Assembly (NCBI RefSeq): GCF_002733955.1
Contig: NZ_NVXQ01000029.1
Location: 1-64,000, forward strand
DNA from: Hoeflea sp.
GTDB taxonomy: Bacteria > Pseudomonadota > Alphaproteobacteria > Rhizobiales > Rhizobiaceae
Reading direction: 5' to 3'
Length of the DNA: 64,000 nucleotides
The translations under genes and the position numbers were made by a program. Within the stretch, counting starts at the first letter, position 1. The number at the start of each line of letters is the position of its first letter. The notes beneath the pieces are model-generated. The model had not been told where the DNA came from, made no database searches, and worked only from the letters and a program-made list of their open reading frames with translations. Of the stretch, positions 4,482 through 64,000 are shown piece by piece.

Positions 4482-5099
4482 TCAGGCACCGGCGATCATG
4501 GCTGCCGCCTCGCTGCAGGTCAGGGTTTTCGCCACCGTCGACAGATCACCGATGGCGCGCTCATGGGTCTCGGCCGAGAACGCGGCACAACCGTCGCTGA
4601 GCACGAATGTCGAAAAATCCCGCACATGCGCGTCGCGCACGGTCGAGGCAACGCCGCCATTGGTGACGATGCCGCAGACCATCAGCGTCTCGATCCCGGC
4701 CTTGCGCAGCACCCATTCAAGCCGCGTCATGTAGAAGGCCGAATAGGCCACTTTCTCCACCGACAGATCGGCGGGCTGCAATTCATCCACCAGCGCATGG
4801 CCCCAGCTGCCAGGGGCAAAATCACCCTTGGCCAGGAACGGACGTATCTGCTTGAGATGCGGCGAGATGAATGGCTCGCCGCCCTTCCCCGGCACCAGCG
4901 TGAATTGCGTCGAGAGGATCCAGCCGCCTTTCTGCCTCAGTGCATTGGCCACCGGCAACACCCGTTCGGGCAGCGCGGCAATCGCTGAACTTTTCTGGTT
5001 GCCGCGTGCATAGGCGCCGTCGGGATGCAGAAAATCGTTTTGCAGATCGACGATCAGCAGGCCTGTGCGTGTGGGATCGAAAGACAGAGCCGTCATCAT
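4482..5099 (-). CDS. isochorismatase-family hydrolase with Gly at the nucleophile position
   Basis: A 205-residue protein of the cysteine hydrolase/isochorismatase fold. The catalytic Asp is in LLIVDLQNDFL (about residues 14-24) and a conserved Lys in VEKVAYSAFY. The loop that normally carries the nucleophilic Cys reads GIVTNGGVASTVRDA, with Gly (codon GGC) where amidases such as nicotinamidase or maleamate amidase have Cys. True isochorismatases (EntB, PhzD) also lack this Cys. The start ATG at 5099 directly abuts the TAG of the upstream oxoprolinase gene, so translation is probably coupled. The operon position suggests a hydrolytic step after ring opening, but the missing Cys makes ordinary amidase chemistry doubtful. 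Confidence 0.8.
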   Translation of the reverse strand: MMTALSFDPTRTGLLIVDLQNDFLHPDGAYARGNQKSSAIAALPERVLPVANALRQKGGWILSTQFTLVPGKGGEPFISPHLKQIRPFLAKGDFAPGSWGHALVDELQPADLSVEKVAYSAFYMTRLEWVLRKAGIETLMVCGIVTNGGVASTVRDAHVRDFSTFVLSDGCAAFSAETHERAIGDLSTVAKTLTCSEAAAMIAGA

Positions 5100-53629: not shown

Positions 53630-53695
53630 TTACTTCCTATTTCCAAATGACATTTGTTCCTGGCAGCCTGTAGCTGCCCATTGTGGAGACACGTC

Positions 53696-54562
53696 ATGGC
53701 CACTCAGCAATCCCGTTCCGCAGCCCGACTGATGATGGCGCCCGCCGTGATCCTGCTACTTGGCTGGATGCTGGTGCCCCTGATCATGACGCTGTGGTTT
53801 TCATTCCGCGTCTACCTGCCCATGCGCGGCGGCGACCAGGGCTGGGCCGGACTTGACAACTACATCCGTTTCGTAAGCTCCAGCTCGTTCTGGCCAAGCA
53901 TCCAGGTCACCCTGATCATCGTCGGTGGTGTTCTCGCGATCACCATCGTCTTCGGGATCATGCTGGCGCTACTGCTTGATCAGCCAATGTGGGGACAGGG
54001 CATCGTCCGCATCCTGGTGATCGCGCCCTTCTTCGTCATGCCCACCGTGTCGGCTCTGGTCTGGAAGAACATCTTCATGGACCCGGTGAACGGCCTGTTC
54101 GCGCATTTGTGGAAATTCTTCGGTGCAACGCCCGTTGAATGGTTGAGCCAAGCCTCGCTGCAATCGATCATCATGATCGTGTCCTGGCAATGGCTGCCCT
54201 TCGCAACGCTGATCCTGCTCACTGCCGTGCAGTCTCTCGACAGCGAACAGATGGAAGCAGCCGAGATGGACGGCGCGCCGGTTCACAAGCGCTTCTGGTT
54301 CCTGACGCTGCCGCATCTGGGCCGCGCCATCACCATCGTGGTCCTGATCCAGACCATCTTTCTCCTGTCGATCTTCGCCGAGATTTTCGTCACCACAGGC
54401 GGCGCCTTCGGCACCCGGACGCTCACCTACCTGATCTTCCAGCGTGTGCTGGAAAGCCAGAATGTCGGCCTCGGTTCGGCCGGCGGTGTCTACGCAATCA
54501 TTCTTGCCAATATCGTTGCCATCTTCCTGATGCGCATCGTCGGCAAGAACCTTGACAAGTGA
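53696..54562 (+). CDS. smoF: polyol ABC transporter permease (SmoF-like)
   Basis: About 288 residues from the ATG at 53696. It has six hydrophobic segments, and the cytoplasmic EAA loop that docks with the ATPase reads EQMEAAEMDGAPVHKRFWFLTLP. It belongs to the MalF/UgpA-type permease family. It pairs with the next gene, 11 nt downstream, to form the channel. Confidence 0.9.
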   Translation: MATQQSRSAARLMMAPAVILLLGWMLVPLIMTLWFSFRVYLPMRGGDQGWAGLDNYIRFVSSSSFWPSIQVTLIIVGGVLAITIVFGIMLALLLDQPMWGQGIVRILVIAPFFVMPTVSALVWKNIFMDPVNGLFAHLWKFFGATPVEWLSQASLQSIIMIVSWQWLPFATLILLTAVQSLDSEQMEAAEMDGAPVHKRFWFLTLPHLGRAITIVVLIQTIFLLSIFAEIFVTTGGAFGTRTLTYLIFQRVLESQNVGLGSAGGVYAIILANIVAIFLMRIVGKNLDK

Positions 54563-54573
54563 GGTGAACGGAC

Positions 54574-55404
54574 ATGGCACGCACAGTCACGACCAACCGC
54601 AAGCTTATCAACACGCTCATCGCCTGGACCATCGGGCTGCTCATCTTCTTCCCGATTCTCTGGACAATCCTGACCAGCTTCAAGACCGAGGCGCAGGCAA
54701 TCAGCGATCCGCCGGTCTTCCTGTTCTTCGACTGGACGCTGGAAAACTATGCCGTCGTGCAGGAACGCTCGAACTATATGCGGTTTCTGTGGAACTCGAT
54801 CATCATTGCCGGCGGTTCGACCGTGCTCGGTCTGATCATCGCGGTGCCAGCAGCCTGGTCGATGGCTTTTGTCCCCTCGAAGCGCACCAAGGACATCCTT
54901 CTGTGGATGCTCTCGACCAAGATGCTTCCGGCGGTCGGCGTGCTCTACCCGATCTACCTGATCTTCATCCAGCTTGGCATTCTTGATACCCGCGCCGGCC
55001 TGGTGATCGTGCTGATGCTGATCAACCTGCCGATCATCGTCTGGATGCTCTACACCTATTTCAAGGAGATCCCGGGCGAGATCCTCGAAGCCGCAAGGAT
55101 GGACGGTGCCTCATTGAAGGACGAGATCCTTTATGTGCTCACCCCGATGGCGGTGCCCGGCATAGCCTCCACGCTACTGCTCAACTTCATCCTCGCCTGG
55201 AACGAAGCCTTCTGGACGCTCAATCTCACCGCCGCCAAGGCGGCGCCGCTGACCGCATTCATTGCCAGCTACTCCAGTCCGGAAGGGCTGTTCTACGCCA
55301 AGCTCTCGGCGGCCTCGACCATGGCCATCGCGCCGATCCTTGTGCTGGGCTGGTTCAGCCAGAAACAACTTGTCCGGGGCTTGACCTTCGGCGCTGTGAA
55401 GTGA
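54574..55404 (+). CDS. smoG: polyol ABC transporter permease (SmoG-like)
   Basis: A 276-residue MalG-type permease with six helices. The EAA loop is [20 protein letters not shown], and [20 protein letters not shown] resembles SmoG and MtlG proteins. It ends 10 nt before the ATPase gene. It works with SmoF in the inner membrane. Confidence 0.9.
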
Positions 55405-55414
55405 GGAGCCAATC

Positions 55415-56415
<1,001 letters not shown>

Positions 56416-56419
<4 letters not shown>

Positions 56420-57189
56420 AACGCCTTGCTGGCAAATCAGCGCTGATCACGGGGGCCGCCCGCGGCATCGGGCGGGCATTCGCTGAAGCCTATGCCCGCG
56501 AGGGCGCCACCGTTGCCATTGCCGACATCAATCTCGAGGCCGCGCAGGCCACGGCCGCGGAAATCGGCGACGCTGCCTATGCCGTTGAGATCGACGTCAG
56601 CCAGCAGGACAGCATTGATGCAGCCATTGCCACGGTCGCAGACAAAGCCGGCAAGCTCGACATCCTGATCAACAACGCGGCTCTTTTCGACGCGGCAGAG
56701 ACCGTCGACATCACCCGCGCCAGCTACGAGAAGCTCTATGCCGTCAATGTCAGCGGCACCTTGTTCACGATGCAGGCCGCTGCCCGGCAGATGATCAGGC
56801 AGGGCCATGGCGGCAAGATCATCAACATGGCGTCCCAGGCAGGGCGCCGCGGCGAAAGCCTGGTCCTGGTCTATTGCTCGACCAAGGCGGCCGTCATTTC
56901 CATGACCCAATCGGCGGGCCTGAACCTGATCAAGCACGGCATCAACGTCAATGCCATCGCCCCCGGCGTGGTCGATGGCGAGCACTGGGAGCATGTCGAT
57001 GCCATGTTCGCAAAACTGGAGCACAAGAAACCCGGCGAGAAGAAAGCCGAAGTCGCAGCAGGCGTGCCCGCGGGCCGCTTTGCTACCCCTGATGACCTGA
57101 CCGGCATGGCCATCTTCCTGGCCTCGTCCGAGTCCGACTACATCCTGTCGCAGACCTACAATGTCGACGGCGGGCAGTGGATGAGCTGA
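56416..57189 (+). CDS. smoS: sorbitol dehydrogenase (SmoS-type SDR)
   Basis: A 257-residue short-chain dehydrogenase. [18 protein letters not shown] is the cofactor motif and [12 protein letters not shown] contains the Asp that selects NAD. The catalytic Tyr/Lys lie in [36 protein letters not shown] and the C-terminal [10 protein letters not shown] are typical of SmoS. It oxidises D-sorbitol to fructose, and related enzymes also take galactitol to tagatose. It overlaps smoK (ATGA) and mtlK (TGATG). Confidence 0.92.
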
Positions 57190-58655
57190 TGAAACTCTCG
57201 AACGCCAATCTCGACCAGCTCCCCCCCGGCATCGATGTGCCTGGTTATGACCGCGCCGGGCTAACCCCCGGCATCGTTCACATCGGTGTCGGCAATTTCC
57301 ACCGCGCCCACCAGGCGGTCTATCTGCACCGTCTGTTCGAAACCGGCCGTGACCACGACTGGGCCATCATCGGCGCCGGCGTGAAATCCTATGACGAAGC
57401 CATGCGCCAGCGGCTTCAACCACAGGACTGGCTCACCACAATTGTCGAACTGGATCCTGCGGGTTTCTCCGCGATGATATGCGGATCGATGATCGACTTC
57501 TGCGCCATCGACGCAGGCCAGCTGATCGAGACGATGGCAAGGCCTGAAATCCGCATCGTCTCGCTGACAGTGACCGAGGGTGGGTATTACGTCGATGCAA
57601 AAACCGGTGGTTTCGACGCTTCACATCCCGACATTATCGCTGATGCCGGAAATCCCGACCGCCCGGCCACCGTGTTCGGCATCATCATCGCGGCGCTGAT
57701 GGCGCGGCGGGCCGCCGGCATCGCGCCCTTCACCGTGATGTCGTGTGACAACCTTCCCGAGAACGGCCATGTCGCGCGCAACGCCGTGGTCGGACTGGCA
57801 AAACTGCGTAGTGACGACCTGGCCCGTTGGATCGAGGCCAATGTTGCCTTTCCCTGCGGCATGGTCGATTGCATCACCCCTGCGACCGGCCCGCGCGAGA
57901 TCTCCATTGTGGCCGAGAAATTCGGGATCGAGGATGCGGCCCCTGTCGTCTGCGAACCGTTCCGGCAATGGGTGCTCGAAGACAATTTCCCGATGGGGCG
58001 CCCCGCGCTGGAGACGGTCGGCGTACAATTCGTCCCCGATGTCGCGCCCTATGAACTGATGAAACTGCGCATCCTCAATGGCGGCCATGCAACCATCGCC
58101 TATCCCGCCGGCCTGCTCGGGATCAATTTCGTCCATGACGCGATGACAAACCCGCTCGTCACGGGATTCCTCGACAGGCTGCAGCATGAGGAAATCATGC
58201 CGACGGTACCGAGCATCGAAGGCGTCAGCACCGAGAGCTACTACCGCAAATGCGTCGAACGGTTTTCCAACCCGGCGATCGGCGACACCATCCCGCGGCT
58301 GTGTTTCGACGGCTCCAACCGGCAACCGAAATTCATCCTGCCAACGATAGAAGCCCGGCTCGCGGCAGGCCAACCAGTCGATGGCCTGGCGCTCGAATCC
58401 GCACTCTGGTGCCGCTATTGTTACGGAACAACCGACAGCGGCGAGATGATCCCGCCCAATGATCCCAACTGGGACCGGCTGACCGCACAGGCAAAACTTG
58501 CCCGGGACACCCCGCAGAAATGGCTGGAGATGGCGGACATCTACGGCGATCTTGGCAGCAATCCGGTCTTCGCCCAAGCCTTTGCCGCAGCCCTCACAGC
58601 GCTCTGGCAAAACGGCGCCGAGGCCACCCTGACGGCCTATATCAACGGCGACTGA
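57189..58655 (+). CDS. mtlK: mannitol 2-dehydrogenase
   Basis: A 488-residue polyol-specific long-chain dehydrogenase. The N-terminal NAD site is IVHIGVGNFHRAHQAVYLHR. The catalytic Lys-Asn-His set is visible in MKLRILNGGHATIAYPAG. CDNLPENGHVARNAVVG and TPATGPREI are also conserved. It oxidises D-mannitol (and D-arabitol) to the ketose. The ATG at 57189 shares one base with the smoS stop. It is the last gene of the polyol operon; a terminator lies at 58897-58918. Confidence 0.93.
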   Translation: MKLSNANLDQLPPGIDVPGYDRAGLTPGIVHIGVGNFHRAHQAVYLHRLFETGRDHDWAIIGAGVKSYDEAMRQRLQPQDWLTTIVELDPAGFSAMICGSMIDFCAIDAGQLIETMARPEIRIVSLTVTEGGYYVDAKTGGFDASHPDIIADAGNPDRPATVFGIIIAALMARRAAGIAPFTVMSCDNLPENGHVARNAVVGLAKLRSDDLARWIEANVAFPCGMVDCITPATGPREISIVAEKFGIEDAAPVVCEPFRQWVLEDNFPMGRPALETVGVQFVPDVAPYELMKLRILNGGHATIAYPAGLLGINFVHDAMTNPLVTGFLDRLQHEEIMPTVPSIEGVSTESYYRKCVERFSNPAIGDTIPRLCFDGSNRQPKFILPTIEARLAAGQPVDGLALESALWCRYCYGTTDSGEMIPPNDPNWDRLTAQAKLARDTPQKWLEMADIYGDLGSNPVFAQAFAAALTALWQNGAEATLTAYINGD

Positions 58656-58953: not shown

Positions 58954-60402
58954 TCAGATTGGATAATGCGGGGTGCCGTCCTGGATGGTGATCCACCTCA
59001 GTTCTGTGAATTCGGCAATGCCCCAGTTTCCGCCAAAGCGTCCATAGCCGGATGCCTTGACGCCGCCGAAGGGCATCTGCGCCTCGTCGTGGACCGTTGG
59101 GCCATTGATGTGGCAGATGCCGCTTTCGATCCGCTTGGCAACGGCCATCGCCTGCATCACGTCCCTGGAGAACACGGCGGAAGACAGCCCGAATTCGGTG
59201 TCATTGGCAATCCGTACGGCTTCATCGACCGAGCCGGCACGAATGATGCTGACGACCGGTCCGAAACTCTCCTCGGTGTAAAGCCGCATGTCGGGGGTCA
59301 CATGATCCAGTGCCGCGGCGTTCAGGATTGTGCCATTGCCGCCGCCGGCAATCAGTTTGGCGCCCTTGGCAACGCCGTCCTCGATGAGCTCCTGAATCCG
59401 TTCGGCCGCACTGCTGGTGACAAGCGAGCCAAGCGGCGACGAACCTTCGCGTGGATCTCCGGCGGTGAGCCCAGCCACTTTCTTCGAAAAGGCCTCGACG
59501 AACTTGTCGCCGACCGAGCCGACCACGATGATGCGTTCCGTCGACATGCAGATCTGGCCCTGGTTCATGTAGGCGCCGAACCCGGCTGCGGCGACTGCCG
59601 CATCGACATCAGCGTCTTCGAGCACGATCATCGGCGCCTTGCCGCCGAGTTCCAGCAATGCCGGCTTCAGATAGCGCCCTGCCAGTTCGCCGATCACCTT
59701 GCCGACCCGGGTCGATCCGGTGAAGTTGATCCGCCGGATTGCCGGATTTGCGATCATTTCCTCCACCAGCGCCGGTGCATCTTCCGGCGCATTCGAAATC
59801 GCGTTGAGCACCCCGTCAGGCAGACCGCCCTGGGCCAGCGCCTCGATGATCAGTGCATGTGTCCGCGGGCAGAGCTCGGATGTCTTCATCACCACGGTGT
59901 TGCCGCAGGCCAGGGGCGTGGCCACGGAGCGGACACCGAGGATGACCGGTGCATTCCAGGGCGCCATCGCCAGGACCACGCCTGCCGGCTGGCGCACAGC
60001 CATTGCCATCGAGCCGGGCCGGTTCGAGGGAACGATTTCGCCCTTGATCTGCGTGGTCAGAGAGGCGGCCTCGATCAGCATGTTCGACGCCAGCATGACG
60101 TTGAAGCGGGCCCAGCCCTCGGTCGCGCCGATTTCCTCGCCCATCGCCTTGACGATATCGTCCGCGCGATCGGTCAGGGAGGCGGCAGCCGCAAGCAGGA
60201 TCTTGCGCCGCTCGGCCGGGCCGGTTTCCGACCACGCCGGAAATGCCTTGGCCGCCGCATCAACGGCCTTTGCCGCGTCTTCAAGCGTTGCAGCGGCTGC
60301 AACTGTGACGGTTTCACCGGTAACAGGATTCTTGCGCTCGAACGTCGCGTTGTTGGAAGCGGCGACATACTGTCCGCCAATATAGTGACCGAGATTATCC
60401 AT
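58954..60402 (-). other. aldehyde dehydrogenase part of the fusion with its own ribosome binding site
   Basis: The ATG at 60402 begins MDNLGHYIGGQYVAAS, the normal N-terminus of a 482-residue aldehyde dehydrogenase, and GAGGA lies 8 nt upstream. The CAA codon at 60429-60427 would be a TAA stop with a single C-to-T change, placing a normal LivF end at LGGT. This suggests the fusion arose by loss of a stop and the two halves may still be made separately. Confidence 0.6.
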
Positions 60403-61134
60403 GCTGCTGTTCCTCGTTGTGGAGTGTTGGGTTCCGCCCAGGAAGGCGCGAATGACGGCCGGGTCGCTGCGCAGGTCGGCAGCGGTGCCGGAACCGGTAA
60501 TGGAGCCTGTTTCAATCAGGTAGGCCCGATCGGCCAATGCAAGTGTGGCGCGGGCATTCTGTTCGACAATCACGATTGTCAGCCCGGTCTCACGGATCTT
60601 GGCGAGCGCCGCAAAGACTTCCTGCGCAACGATCGGCGCCAGTCCGAGCGAAGGCTCGTCAAGCAGCAGCAGATCCGGCGCCGACATCAGCGCCCGCCCG
60701 ATCGCCACCATCTGCTGCTCTCCGCCCGACATGGTGCCGGCCAGTTGGCTGCCGCGTTCGGCAAGCCGCGGAAACAGCGCGTGAACCAGCTCCAGGTTCT
60801 TCGCCCTGTCCTTGTGTGCGCGTTCGGGCAGCGCACCGAGCCTGAGGTTTTCCGCCACGGTAAGTTGTGGGAAGATGCCGCGTCCCTCCGGCACGATGAC
60901 GATCCCGTGCTCGACCACCTCGTGCGGCTTGAGTGCGAGAATGTCGCGCCCGTTGTAGGTCACCTCGCCGCCGGAGGGCTTGATCCGCCCGCCGATGGCC
61001 CCGAGCAGCGAGGACTTGCCTGCGCCATTGGCCCCGAGAATGGCCACCATCTCGCCCTTGCTGACGCCGAGCGAAATCTGGTCGATGGCGACATGCTTTC
61101 CGTAGACGACGCTGATATCTTTGATCTCAAGCAT
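58954..61134 (-). CDS. in-frame fusion of LivF-type ABC ATPase and vanillin-dehydrogenase-like aldehyde dehydrogenase
   Basis: One open frame of about 726 residues joins two complete proteins. Residues 1-240 are a LivF ATPase: Walker A ILGANGAGKSSLLGAIGG, signature MSGGEQQMVAIGRALM, Walker B LLLLDEPSLGLAP. Residues 245-726 are a full aldehyde dehydrogenase: NFTGSTRVGKVIGE, LLELGGKAPMIVL with the Glu, and MNQGQICMSTERIIV with the Cys; this matches vanillin/salicylaldehyde dehydrogenases. LivF proteins normally stop just after FLGG; here GGTQHSTTRNSS leads straight into the aldehyde dehydrogenase Met. An internal GAGGA 8 nt before that ATG means separate translation is also possible. The start at 61134 overlaps the LivG gene by 8 nt. 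Confidence 0.85.
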   Translation of the reverse strand: MLEIKDISVVYGKHVAIDQISLGVSKGEMVAILGANGAGKSSLLGAIGGRIKPSGGEVTYNGRDILALKPHEVVEHGIVIVPEGRGIFPQLTVAENLRLGALPERAHKDRAKNLELVHALFPRLAERGSQLAGTMSGGEQQMVAIGRALMSAPDLLLLDEPSLGLAPIVAQEVFAALAKIRETGLTIVIVEQNARATLALADRAYLIETGSITGSGTAADLRSDPAVIRAFLGGTQHSTTRNSSMDNLGHYIGGQYVAASNNATFERKNPVTGETVTVAAAATLEDAAKAVDAAAKAFPAWSETGPAERRKILLAAAASLTDRADDIVKAMGEEIGATEGWARFNVMLASNMLIEAASLTTQIKGEIVPSNRPGSMAMAVRQPAGVVLAMAPWNAPVILGVRSVATPLACGNTVVMKTSELCPRTHALIIEALAQGGLPDGVLNAISNAPEDAPALVEEMIANPAIRRINFTGSTRVGKVIGELAGRYLKPALLELGGKAPMIVLEDADVDAAVAAAGFGAYMNQGQICMSTERIIVVGSVGDKFVEAFSKKVAGLTAGDPREGSSPLGSLVTSSAAERIQELIEDGVAKGAKLIAGGGNGTILNAAALDHVTPDMRLYTEESFGPVVSIIRAGSVDEAVRIANDTEFGLSSAVFSRDVMQAMAVAKRIESGICHINGPTVHDEAQMPFGGVKASGYGRFGGNWGIAEFTELRWITIQDGTPHYPI

Positions 61135-61855
61135 CTTCGGCATCTCCCAGATAGGCCGCGATCACGGAAGGGTCGGACAGCACTTGCGATGTCTCGCCAT
61201 CGGCGATCAGCTTGCCGGCATTCATCACCGCGCAGCGAGGACACAGCGCCCGCACCGCTTCCATGATGTGTTCGACCATGATGATGGTGATTCCAGATCC
61301 CGACAACGAGCTGATCAGCCGGATGCCCTCCTGCAGTTCGGTCGGGTTGAGACCCGCCAGCCACTCGTCAAGCAGCAGCAGTTCGGGCTCGGCGGCAAGT
61401 GCCCGGGCCAGTTCCAGCCGCTTCTGGTCAATATAGTTGAGATCCCCGGCATGGGCGCCGGCGCGGTCGCCGAGACCGGTCTTCTCAAGCGCTTCACGCG
61501 CCACCCGGTCGGCTTCCTTGCCCCAATGCGCCCGGTGGCCGAAAACCGCCGGAAGCATGACATTTTCCAGCAGGGTCAGCGACGGCAGGATCCGCACCAG
61601 CTGGAATGTCCGGGCGATGCCGGCGCGGGCGATCTTGTCGACGCGGGCGCCGGCGAGGTTCTGGCCATTGAAGACGATCCTGCCCGAGGAGGGCGCGAGA
61701 AAACCCGAGATCAGGTTCAAAAGCGTTGTCTTGCCGGACCCGTTGGGGCCGAGCAGCCCCATGATGGTCCCGCTTTCCATTTCAAACGAAACCTGGTCGA
61801 CCGCTTTCAGACCACCAAAATTCCGTGCCGCCTTGTCAACATGCAAAAGGCTCAT
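61127..61855 (-). CDS. livG: branched-chain-amino-acid-type ABC transporter ATPase (LivG)
   Basis: A 242-residue LivG. Walker A is LLGPNGSGKTTLLNLISG; Walker B LLLLDEWLAGLNP; the H-loop MVEHIMEAVRAL. The LivG-type degenerate signature region is LNYIDQKRLELARAL. It overlaps the LivM gene by ATGA at the start and the ATPase-aldehyde dehydrogenase gene by ATGCTTGA at the end. The transporter it serves may import an aromatic acid or aldehyde precursor, given the aldehyde dehydrogenase fused next to it. Confidence 0.9.
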   Translation of the reverse strand: MSLLHVDKAARNFGGLKAVDQVSFEMESGTIMGLLGPNGSGKTTLLNLISGFLAPSSGRIVFNGQNLAGARVDKIARAGIARTFQLVRILPSLTLLENVMLPAVFGHRAHWGKEADRVAREALEKTGLGDRAGAHAGDLNYIDQKRLELARALAAEPELLLLDEWLAGLNPTELQEGIRLISSLSGSGITIIMVEHIMEAVRALCPRCAVMNAGKLIADGETSQVLSDPSVIAAYLGDAEDA

Positions 61856-62766
61856 GGTCTTGTCCTTCCAAACCTTGCGCGCAGATCATCGAAGCCGGCG
61901 AGCAGGCCGTTGGGCAGCACGAAGACGACGGCAATGAACATCAGCCCGAGGAAGATCGGATAGGTGTCGGGGAAATTCACCGACAGCCATTCAAACAGCA
62001 GGAACAGCGGAATGGCCCCGACAAGCGGTCCCCACAGACGGTTGGCCCCGCCCAAGAGCGCCATGATGACGGTGAGGAAGCTGACGGTCGGATTGAACAC
62101 GATCAGCGGCTCGACATAGACCCATCTTGGCGACGCGACCGCGCCGACCAGCGTGATCAGCGTTGCCGAGATGGTGAAGGCAAACAGTTTGGTCCGCGCC
62201 AGGTGAATGCCCGAATGCGCGGCCACCACCTCGTCATCGCCGATCGCCCTGAGCGCCAGACCCAGCCGCGAGCGGTTGATCCAGGCGGTGAGACCGATGG
62301 CGATCGCCACCAGCGCCAGCATCTGCCAGTAGATGTCGCGTGCGGTAAGATCGAGAAAGATATAGCGGCCCAGCGTGCCGGTAACCGTCACTTCGTACCA
62401 GGTGATCAGCTGGCGGACCAGTTCGGCCAGGCCGAAGGTGAAGATCACGAAATAGATGCCCGAGAGGCGCAGTGTCGAAAGTCCGACCAGCAGCGCCATC
62501 GCCGCCCCGATAAGGCCCGCGCAGAGGATCACCACCGGGTAAGGCAGGGTCTCGTTGAGCACCGCCACAGTGTAGGCCCCGGTTCCGTAAAACGCCACGG
62601 TGGCCAGCGAGATGTAGCGGGTGTGGCCTGAAAACAGTGCCCACGCCGAGGCCAGGGCCACATAGCTGGCCATGCCGATCATCAGGCCGAGCTCGTATTC
62701 GGAGACGAACATCGGCACCACGGCCAGTGCCGCGAGTGCTGCAAGTGCGATTGCCAGACGGATCAT
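61852..62766 (-). CDS. livM: branched-chain-amino-acid-type ABC permease (LivM)
   Basis: About 304 residues from the ATG at 62766, 5 nt behind GGGAGG and overlapping the LivH gene by 4 nt; an upstream in-frame start would only add LivH-frame residues. Hydrophobic segments and the LivM features YISLATVAFYGTGAYTVAV, RAIGDDEVVAAHSGIH and LLGGANRLWGPLVGA are visible. It is the second channel subunit of the right-hand Liv operon. Confidence 0.9.
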   Translation of the reverse strand: MIRLAIALAALAALAVVPMFVSEYELGLMIGMASYVALASAWALFSGHTRYISLATVAFYGTGAYTVAVLNETLPYPVVILCAGLIGAAMALLVGLSTLRLSGIYFVIFTFGLAELVRQLITWYEVTVTGTLGRYIFLDLTARDIYWQMLALVAIAIGLTAWINRSRLGLALRAIGDDEVVAAHSGIHLARTKLFAFTISATLITLVGAVASPRWVYVEPLIVFNPTVSFLTVIMALLGGANRLWGPLVGAIPLFLLFEWLSVNFPDTYPIFLGLMFIAVVFVLPNGLLAGFDDLRARFGRTRP

Positions 62767-63629
62767 TGACGCCTCCCGAACAGGCCTTGCGGACGCCATA
62801 TCAGGACGGCAAGAAAGATGGTGAAGGTCGCGGCCAGTGTCAGGCCGGGGTCGAAGGTGGTGGCCACAAAGGTTTCAACCAGTCCCAGTGCAAAGCCTGC
62901 AGCGAGCGCGCCGGCCACGTTGCCGACCCCGCCCATGATCACGATGATGAGCGCCTTCATGGTGAACACGACGCCGTCATTGGCCGAAAATGTCTGGTAC
63001 ATGGCGACGCTGGCGCCGCCGACAGAGGCCAGCGCAGTGCCGAGAGCAAAGCCTTGCCGGCTGACCTTGTTGACATCGATACCGACCAGCGGCGCCGAGC
63101 CGGGCGTCAGCGCCACCGCGCGCAGGATCAGACCCCAGCGGCTGCGGGCAAGCAGCACCACCAGCGAAAGGCCCGCAACAAGACAGATGGCAAAGGCGAT
63201 CAGCCGGTTCAGCGCCACCGAGACGCCAAACACGTCGATGCCCTGGTCGAGATAGGAAATCGAGGTGAAGTTGGCGCCGAACAGCACCAGCATGATGCCT
63301 TGCAGCACGAACAGCAGCCCGAATGTCGCCAGTATGGAATCCACTTCCAGCTTGCCGGCATTGCCCTGAGCTCGTTGCACCAGCGGTCGCATCATCACGG
63401 TGTAGAGCAGCCAGCCCGCGAGATAGCCTGACGGACCGATCAGCAGGATCGAGATCAATGGCGGCAGGCCGGCCGACTGGAACAGGAAGACCAACACGAA
63501 GGCGGCCAGCAATGTCACTTCACCATAGGCAAGGTTCATGATCCGGGCGATGCCGTATTGCAGCGTCAGCCCGAGCGCCAGCAGCGCATAGGTGCCGCCC
63601 AGCACGAGGCCGAGCACGAGCGTCGTCAT
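62763..63629 (-). CDS. livH: branched-chain-amino-acid-type ABC permease (LivH)
   Basis: A 288-residue LivH. LGLVLGGTYALLALGLTLQY, IMNLAYGEVTLLAAFVLVF, LRAVALTPGSAPLVGIDVN and MGGVGNVAGALAAGFALG are typical. It follows the binding-protein gene after an 86-nt gap that contains a 10-bp stem-loop. It overlaps the LivM gene by ATGA. Confidence 0.9.
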   Translation of the reverse strand: MTTLVLGLVLGGTYALLALGLTLQYGIARIMNLAYGEVTLLAAFVLVFLFQSAGLPPLISILLIGPSGYLAGWLLYTVMMRPLVQRAQGNAGKLEVDSILATFGLLFVLQGIMLVLFGANFTSISYLDQGIDVFGVSVALNRLIAFAICLVAGLSLVVLLARSRWGLILRAVALTPGSAPLVGIDVNKVSRQGFALGTALASVGGASVAMYQTFSANDGVVFTMKALIIVIMGGVGNVAGALAAGFALGLVETFVATTFDPGLTLAATFTIFLAVLIWRPQGLFGRRQ

Positions 63630-63715: not shown

Positions 63716-64000
63716 TTACCAGTCAGGCTTCGGTATGACGGGGGCAACAGCGCCGTCCTTGTCGGACGGGTTCACCGCCACGAAGGTACCATTCTGCCAC
63801 TGCCCGACCCACCAGAGATCGCGCAACTGGTTGTCTTCCAGCTTGACGTCACCGATGATGGTGCTGAACGTGCCGTTGGACAGCTCTTCCGCAAGCTTGG
63901 CGTGGTCGAGACCGACGCGCTCGATCGACTGTGCCAGCATCTCGAGCGATGCATAGGTGATCGCCGAAGCCCAGCTGTCGGGCGGAGCGCCGGCACTGTC
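63716..64000 (-). CDS. ABC transporter substrate-binding protein, C-terminal part (cut by the window)
   Basis: The last 94 residues of a Liv-type periplasmic binding protein; the frame runs off the right edge. The visible end (SWASAITYASLEMLAQSIERV, LAEELSNGTFSTIIGDVKLE, then WWVGQWQNGTFVAVNP) is typical of the LivJ/aromatic-acid-binding family, where the tail carries the final helix and strand. It is the first visible gene of the leftward Liv operon. The ligand is unknown. Confidence 0.8.
   Translation of the reverse strand, partial: DSAGAPPDSWASAITYASLEMLAQSIERVGLDHAKLAEELSNGTFSTIIGDVKLEDNQLRDLWWVGQWQNGTFVAVNPSDKDGAVAPVIPKPDW

What the first reader, a model, noticed from the sequence alone, without database searches (positions are those of the whole stretch)
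58954..61134. LivF ATPase fused in frame to an aldehyde dehydrogenase by loss of one stop codon
The sequence shows a continuous frame from a complete LivF ATPase into a complete vanillin-dehydrogenase-like enzyme. The linker is only about 12 residues (TQHSTTRNSS region) and the CAA codon at 60429-60427 is one transition from TAA. The aldehyde dehydrogenase keeps its own ribosome binding site. A transporter ATPase tethered to a metabolic enzyme would couple import to oxidation; alternatively both forms are made, or this is a recent mutation or sequencing error.
Basis: partly seen in the sequence, partly recalled or inferred. Interest (0 to 1): 0.7.

Follow-up and report, generated by a model that had tools for sequence, protein, structure and literature searches.

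The report
Importer ATPase fused to aldehyde dehydrogenase
Several groups of bacteria carry a gene that joins the motor part of a nutrient importer to an enzyme that oxidises (probably aromatic) aldehydes; the joint is old and a second start signal for the enzyme alone is kept, so this is a stable fused gene and not a mutation or sequencing error.

Summary
One minus-strand frame (58954-61143; likelier start 61134) runs from a complete LivF-type ABC ATPase through a 10-residue linker into a complete aromatic-type aldehyde dehydrogenase (ALDH). It is not a sequencing error or recent mutation: 7 of 7 genus genomes with the whole locus are open, so are 3 more distant members of the same supported clade, and the fusion recurs in Hyphomicrobium and in a Burkholderiales clade of 21. 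That clade is one supported branch with no frame change where its split sister clade shows nine. Linkers are hydrophilic in the fused frame (3.5% hydrophobic residues against 12 and 18% in the other frames). Internal ribosome-binding sites are, on median, as strong as in unfused relatives, though weaker in the window's own clade. Best reading: a maintained fusion that also makes free ALDH by internal initiation, holding ALDH at the importer. Nothing here measures protein, transport or activity; coupling of import to oxidation is inference. In the window's own clade, absence of stops alone does not reject neutrality (P 0.08-0.57).

The parts
60433..61134 (-). LivF-type ABC ATPase part (residues 4-237 of the 729-aa frame; Walker A, signature SGGEQQ and Walker B intact)
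   Evidence: Pfam ABC_tran E 4e-30; BCA_ABC_TP_C only below its cut-off, 21.1 of 25.5 bits; NCBIfam LivF model matched over its length but below its cut-off; motif residues invariant or nearly so in 32 aligned fusions; start chosen
60403..60432 (-). In-frame linker TQHSTTRNSS
   Evidence: AlphaFold pLDDT below 50 at residues 236-247; hydrophilic-linker test
60411..60415 (-). Shine-Dalgarno-like GAGGA, 8 nt before the internal ATG
   Evidence: GAGG present in 7 of 7 genus loci; duplex energy -5.9, tied weakest of the 36 fused loci with L089, L090, L091
60400..60402 (-). Internal ATG, the probable start of free ALDH
58954..60402 (-). Aromatic-type aldehyde dehydrogenase part (residues 248-729 and stop)
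   Evidence: Pfam Aldedh; nearest solved sequences salicylaldehyde DH 6qhn and vanillin DH 9ihb; Foldseek top match 6qhn; Asn397, Glu498, Cys532 invariant in 32 fusions
61127..61855 (-). LivG-type ABC ATPase, overlapping the start of the fusion gene
61852..62799 (-). LivM-type permease
62763..63629 (-). LivH-type permease
63716..64000 (-). Periplasmic binding protein gene (Peripla_BP_6), cut by the window's end; whole gene at contig C18 63716-64945

Best explanation
A maintained gene fusion at the end of a Liv-type importer operon (binding protein, LivH, LivM, LivG, LivF-ALDH). Ribosomes that translate livF meet no stop before the ALDH, so LivF-ALDH is made (follows from the sequence, not measured). 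A second entry at the retained internal ribosome-binding site makes free ALDH (inferred from conservation). The LivF part sits with LivG under the LivHM permease and holds one ALDH subunit on a short flexible tether; free ALDH subunits complete the ALDH oligomer (inferred). The incoming compound, or an aldehyde made from it, is then oxidised at the membrane to a charged acid, which would limit aldehyde toxicity and back-diffusion (inferred).
For: Open frame in 7 of 7 genus genomes with the full locus and in a 10-row fused clade over three family codes, SH-aLRT 100 on a quick tree. In Burkholderiales 21 fused rows form one clade, 98/99, one change in 97% of 200 bootstrap trees. No frame change there over tree length 2.15, against 9 over 2.12 in the split sister clade, P about 1e-4; about 10 linker length changes. 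Simulated neutral absence of stops in those 21: P 0.0015-0.012. Linker hydrophobic residues 20/567 in frame, 66/567 and 100/567 in the other frames, 136/673 in split spacers; 24 hand-chosen clade representatives 3.4% vs 15.4%, Wilcoxon p 2e-5. Internal SD median -8.3 in 36 fused and -8.3 in 61 split loci, -3.0 at 4714 internal ATG/GTG controls. dN/dS 0.04-0.14 in both parts over 5 genus pairs. Catalytic and ATPase motif residues invariant in the 32 of 36 fusions aligned.
Against: No protein, transport or enzyme data. In the window's own clade the absence of stops alone fits neutral drift: P 0.35-0.57 for the 7 genus rows, 0.08-0.24 for the 10 rows. Internal SDs are weak there: 4 of 7 genus loci are tied weakest of 36, and with a shorter anti-SD string three other members (L098, L127, L128) fall to -3.7 or -3.8 while 33 of 36 reach -5.5. 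Two ALDHs that group by ALDH tree with the fused Burkholderiales clade (L192, L207) stand without LivF. Unfused operons are common: 61 of 97 rows; in the class sample of 337 genomes both matches other than the window's have stops; of 9 plasmid records covering most of the query I looked at 3, all split. So fusion is not required for the pathway.
Confidence: 0.62

Rival explanations
1. Fusion only: the internal ribosome-binding site is a leftover and all ALDH is made as LivF-ALDH.
For: In the window clade the internal SD is modest: GAGG, -5.9 in 4 and -6.7 in 3 of the 7 genus loci; L098, L127, L128 only -3.7 or -3.8 with the shorter anti-SD string. No ribosome data exist.
Against: Over all 36 fused loci SDs are as strong as in 61 split loci (median -8.3 both, p 0.39) and stronger than internal controls, also across the 21-row Burkholderiales clade where linker residues vary.
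Confidence: 0.18
2. Neutral fusion: the stop codon was lost by drift, the C-terminal extension of LivF is harmless, and internal initiation supplies the working ALDH; the tether has no function.
For: Linker residues vary; the two genes are separate in many relatives; stops alone do not reject neutrality in the window clade; two relocated free ALDHs.
Against: No frame change in the Burkholderiales fused clade vs 9 in its split sister, stop simulation P 0.0015-0.012 there, and in-frame hydrophilic linkers.
Confidence: 0.18
3. Sequencing or assembly error, or a mutation in this strain only.
For: The CAA codon is one transition from TAA.
Against: 6 of 6 other genus genomes with the locus are open with different linker sequences; so are 29 further distinct loci outside the genus.
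Confidence: 0.02

Closest known systems
Separate LivF and ALDH genes in Liv-type uptake operons (Ensifer sp. PDNC004 plasmid, NZ_CP070354.1; Shinella sp. SUS2, L010)
   Same: Same gene order binding protein-LivH-LivM-LivG-LivF-ALDH (annotation; for L010); protein match 66% over residues 4-729 in Ensifer
   Different: A stop codon ends LivF before the ALDH start. In Ensifer SDR, TPP-enzyme and dihydroxyacetophenone-dioxygenase genes follow; in the window the next gene after the fusion is a convergent mannitol dehydrogenase
Salicylaldehyde / vanillin dehydrogenases (PDB 6qhn, 9ihb, 4jz6)
   Same: ALDH part matches at E 3e-180, 2e-179, 4e-150; 58% identity to 6qhn in the Foldseek alignment
   Different: The deposited chains of 6qhn and 9ihb are 470 and 467 residues long, matched over nearly their whole length by the ALDH part alone
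Convergent ALDH-ADH fusion enzymes AdhE and BdhE (PMC12454647; start of abstract and 8 passages seen)
   Same: Independent fusions that join an ALDH to a partner; the paper argues for substrate channelling
   Different: Partner there is a second enzyme; here it is an importer ATPase. The word 'transporter' does not occur in that paper's main text
Peptidase-containing ABC transporters, PCATs (PMC6959990; start of abstract seen in the listing)
   Same: An enzyme acting on the cargo is part of an ABC transporter
   Different: Exporter with peptidase; here an importer ATPase with an oxidoreductase

Membership tests
LivF / branched-chain amino acid ABC ATPase family | ABC ATPase motifs and LivF-type profile match | tested here: met
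   Pfam ABC_tran E 4e-30; NCBIfam LivF equivalog matched over 4-237 of 237 at 243.5 bits, below its cut-off of 441, so LivF-like rather than a member of that equivalog
LivF / branched-chain amino acid ABC ATPase family | Operon with LivH, LivM, LivG and a Peripla_BP_6 binding protein | tested here: met
LivF / branched-chain amino acid ABC ATPase family | Transports branched-chain amino acids | not testable with these tools
   Neighbouring catabolic genes suggest another cargo
Aldehyde dehydrogenase superfamily | Aldedh domain with catalytic Cys, Glu and Asn | tested here: met
   Pfam E 2e-143; C532, E498, N397 invariant in 32 fusions; the catalytic roles are recalled
Salicylaldehyde/vanillin dehydrogenase group | Nearest solved relatives are named as aromatic aldehyde dehydrogenases | tested here: met
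Salicylaldehyde/vanillin dehydrogenase group | A curated family model for a named ALDH activity is passed | tested here: not met
   The ALDH models among the 25 shown of 116 NCBIfam matches score far below their cut-offs (best 341 of 646 bits); substrate itself not tested
Gene fusion kept by selection | Open junction kept on a supported clade beyond neutral expectation | tested here: met
   Met in the Burkholderiales clade
Gene fusion kept by selection | The same within the window's own clade, by absence of stops | tested here: inconclusive
   P 0.35-0.57 (7 rows), 0.08-0.24 (10 rows)

The most novel reading that the evidence does not exclude
A dual-product gene that builds an import-and-oxidise complex: the fused form anchors one ALDH subunit per importer, free ALDH made from the internal start fills the oligomer around it, and the aldehyde is oxidised as it enters. 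The design arose in several lineages of Alpha- and Betaproteobacteria.
Probability: 0.33. Interest if true: 0.72.

Novelty: new variant of a known kind. Interest (0 to 1): 0.55.

Why it matters
Fusions that join an importer's ATPase to the first catabolic enzyme would give genetic evidence of coupling between uptake and metabolism of toxic aldehydes. Split and fused versions exist in sister clades, so the benefit of tethering can be tested. It also means that a gene caller which picks only the long or only the short start would miss one product of a two-product gene.

Tried and rejected
Sequencing error or recent mutation: rejected. A single TAA-to-CAA event at 60429-60427: not supported. AGG at the SD as a rare codon kept for initiation: dropped, because AGG is 16 of 149 Arg codons in 8 window genes and the 7 genus loci share descent. 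Stops alone as proof of selection in the window clade: inconclusive. Extended LivF tails of 15 split Burkholderiales loci (median 22 aa, against 5 in the other split loci) looked like fission remnants on the first quick tree; the careful tree makes the fused rows one clade with a split sister, so fission is not needed. Internal promoter scan: 2 hits against 0.4 expected, one spanning 60423-60394, given no weight. The top 50 fold matches shown are to the ALDH part and say nothing on the pair of domains.

Literature: ten searches; papers listed of papers found: 15 of 17; 14 of 14; 6 of 6; 10 of 766; 12 of 417; 10 of 552; 10 of 19; 8 of 2,508; 10 of 58; 10 of 27. No listed title or abstract start describes a LivF-ALDH fusion. 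Open-licence PMC only; one paper was opened, for passages.

Sampling limits: loci were found with a joined protein, so same-frame cases are over-represented (41 of 61 split rows are in the same frame, counted by hand); 36 of 98 is not a natural frequency. Seven duplicate loci were removed and one paralogue locus (L084) dropped before the tree and SD counts. One search drew 299 genomes evenly from a larger family; all 47 that matched at E 1e-250 were looked at, and 3 had no LivF beside the ALDH in the fetched stretch (L192, L203, L207). Only 32 of the 36 fused loci went into the protein alignment. In the SD test the best start among nearby in-frame codons was taken for fused and split loci (chosen) but not for the controls, which favours both over the controls. 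The neutral scale comes from one genus pair and was used for Burkholderiales too.

Full report
OBSERVATION. On the minus strand one open frame of 729 codons plus stop (58954-61143) encodes an ABC ATPase followed by an aldehyde dehydrogenase. Pfam places ABC_tran at residues 21-165 and Aldedh at 262-718. GC by codon position fits coding in both parts: third-position GC 0.79 in LivF, 0.76 in ALDH.

IT IS NOT LOCAL. Of 18 genus genomes searched (the window's own included), 7 hold the full locus and all 7 are open. One more (G007) holds only the last 291 residues of the ALDH, one (G011) matches only a 40% ALDH relative, and 9 have no match at E 1e-100. Linkers differ (TQHSTTRNSS, NQNSTTRHST, EQTKATRQST, EQTQKRPNS and others) and by one whole codon. 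Synonymous divergence between genus members is 0.73-1.02 with dN/dS 0.04-0.14 in both parts, 5 pairs.

WIDER SEARCHES. Family (297 genomes): besides the window, 11 rows cover both parts, 2 open and 9 with one stop. Order (397): among the rows covering both parts, the new open ones are L127, L128 and L134, the others have a stop. Class (337): 2 matches besides the window, both with stops. One genus of the same order (60 genomes sampled): 3 of 8 matches open, 5 with stops, so fused and split coexist in a genus. GTDB contigs, 80 loci kept: Hyphomicrobium sp. (L013), a Roseateles MAG (L016), a Burkholderiaceae MAG (L034) and a Rubrivivax MAG (L078) are open. The phylum and Burkholderiales-family searches added the rest. 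Plasmids: 9 records cover most of the query; the 3 I looked at are split. After removing 7 duplicates, 98 loci have the two parts adjacent, 36 of them fused. This share is biased, because searches were made with the joined protein.

PHYLOGENY. On a quick tree of 97 rows the label fused/split needs at least 7 changes, with 6 forced by starred branches. The window's locus lies in a 10-row all-fused clade (SH-aLRT 100) that spans three family codes. Fused rows also occur as L099, as L013/L134/L190 (with split L133 among them), singly as L188 beside the split L132, and in Burkholderiales. For Burkholderiales I added 16 stretches so that all 47 genomes matching were looked at. On a careful tree of 55 rows the 21 fused loci are one clade (98/99; one change in 97% of 200 bootstrap trees, although the bootstrap had not settled) with a sister clade of 24 split loci. 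Over nearly equal tree length the split clade changed frame 9 times and the fused clade never (Poisson P about 1e-4), although fused linkers changed length about 10 times. A fused row is in frame by definition; the point is that no examined member of the clade with LivF beside ALDH has left the frame. Two ALDHs that group with this clade by a quick ALDH-only tree have no LivF beside them at all (L192, L207).

LINKER AND INTERNAL START. In 34 distinct linkers, 20 of 567 residues are hydrophobic in the fused frame, against 66 and 100 of 567 in the two other frames and 136 of 673 in split spacers read in the LivF frame. For 24 hand-chosen representatives the means are 3.4% and 15.4%, p 2e-5. Linkers are rich in Ala, Ser, Thr, Pro, Lys and Glu. 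AlphaFold gives residues 236-247 pLDDT below 50 between two folded parts; the model is middling (mean pLDDT 78.8, pTM 0.59, 32 sequences) and also drops below 50 in four ALDH stretches, one of them around Cys532. So the linker looks translated and kept flexible. The internal Shine-Dalgarno is as strong in fused (median -8.3, n=36) as in split loci (-8.3, n=61) and stronger than at 4714 internal ATG/GTG codons (-3.0). The window clade is at the weak end: -5.9 in 4 and -6.7 in 3 of the 7 genus loci, and with a shorter anti-SD string L098, L127 and L128 reach only -3.7 or -3.8. A neutral substitution model predicts loss of the open linker in the 21-row clade (P of no stop 0.0015-0.012) but not firmly in the window clade (0.08-0.24 for 10 rows, 0.35-0.57 for the genus). 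The model is crude: one rate scale from dS of one genus pair, no indels.

WHAT THE PARTS DO. The operon is binding protein (Peripla_BP_6), LivH, LivM, LivG, LivF-ALDH. The same order shows in alphaproteobacterial relatives; in the Burkholderiales loci with lower similarity LivH, and in some the binding protein or LivG, fell below my 38% identity filter. Further upstream of the window's operon are an AraC-type regulator, a double CoA-transferase, a GMC oxidoreductase and a LysR regulator. A distant split relative has a GMC gene next to the ALDH; a closer one has SDR, TPP-enzyme and dihydroxyacetophenone-dioxygenase genes downstream. The nearest solved structures are salicylaldehyde and vanillin dehydrogenases, but no NCBIfam ALDH model shown reaches its cut-off. 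An aromatic alcohol, aldehyde or ketone is therefore the likely cargo, by inference. ATPase motif and ALDH active-site residues are invariant in the 32 fusions aligned.

MECHANISM. Shown: open junction, intact parts, internal start signals present, in-frame linker evolution. Following from sequence: a ribosome that translates livF makes LivF-ALDH. Inferred: free ALDH from internal initiation, mixed oligomers, tethering to the importer, oxidation at entry.

NOVELTY. The ten literature searches listed no paper whose title or abstract start describes this fusion; several lists were capped far below the number found. Enzyme-to-transporter fusions (PCATs) and ALDH fusions (AdhE, BdhE) are known, so I file this as a new variant of a known kind.

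Noticed in passing
L191:2587-5097 (contig C18, upstream of the window): An 836-aa protein with two CoA-transferase family III stretches, itself an apparent fusion of two subunits, in the same neighbourhood.
   Followed up: no
L095 (G007), about 1501-2373: A genus member keeps only the last 291 residues of the ALDH, in an open frame of 299 aa with no LivF match in the fetched stretch: apparently a truncated remnant.
   Followed up: partly
15 split Burkholderiales loci, e.g. L015, L171, L179, L181: LivF there ends in a tail of median 22 aa, often TTAADA..RRR-like, against 5 aa in other split loci; function unknown.
   Followed up: partly
L192 and L207: ALDH genes that group with the fused clade found in other surroundings (a frame upstream in L192 looks thiolase-like by eye, not scanned), without LivF.
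   Followed up: partly
window 53654-58655 (+): A neighbouring polyol-type cluster on the other strand: two permease-like frames, an ABC ATPase, a short-chain dehydrogenase (these by eye) and a mannitol dehydrogenase family protein (only the last was scanned).
   Followed up: no
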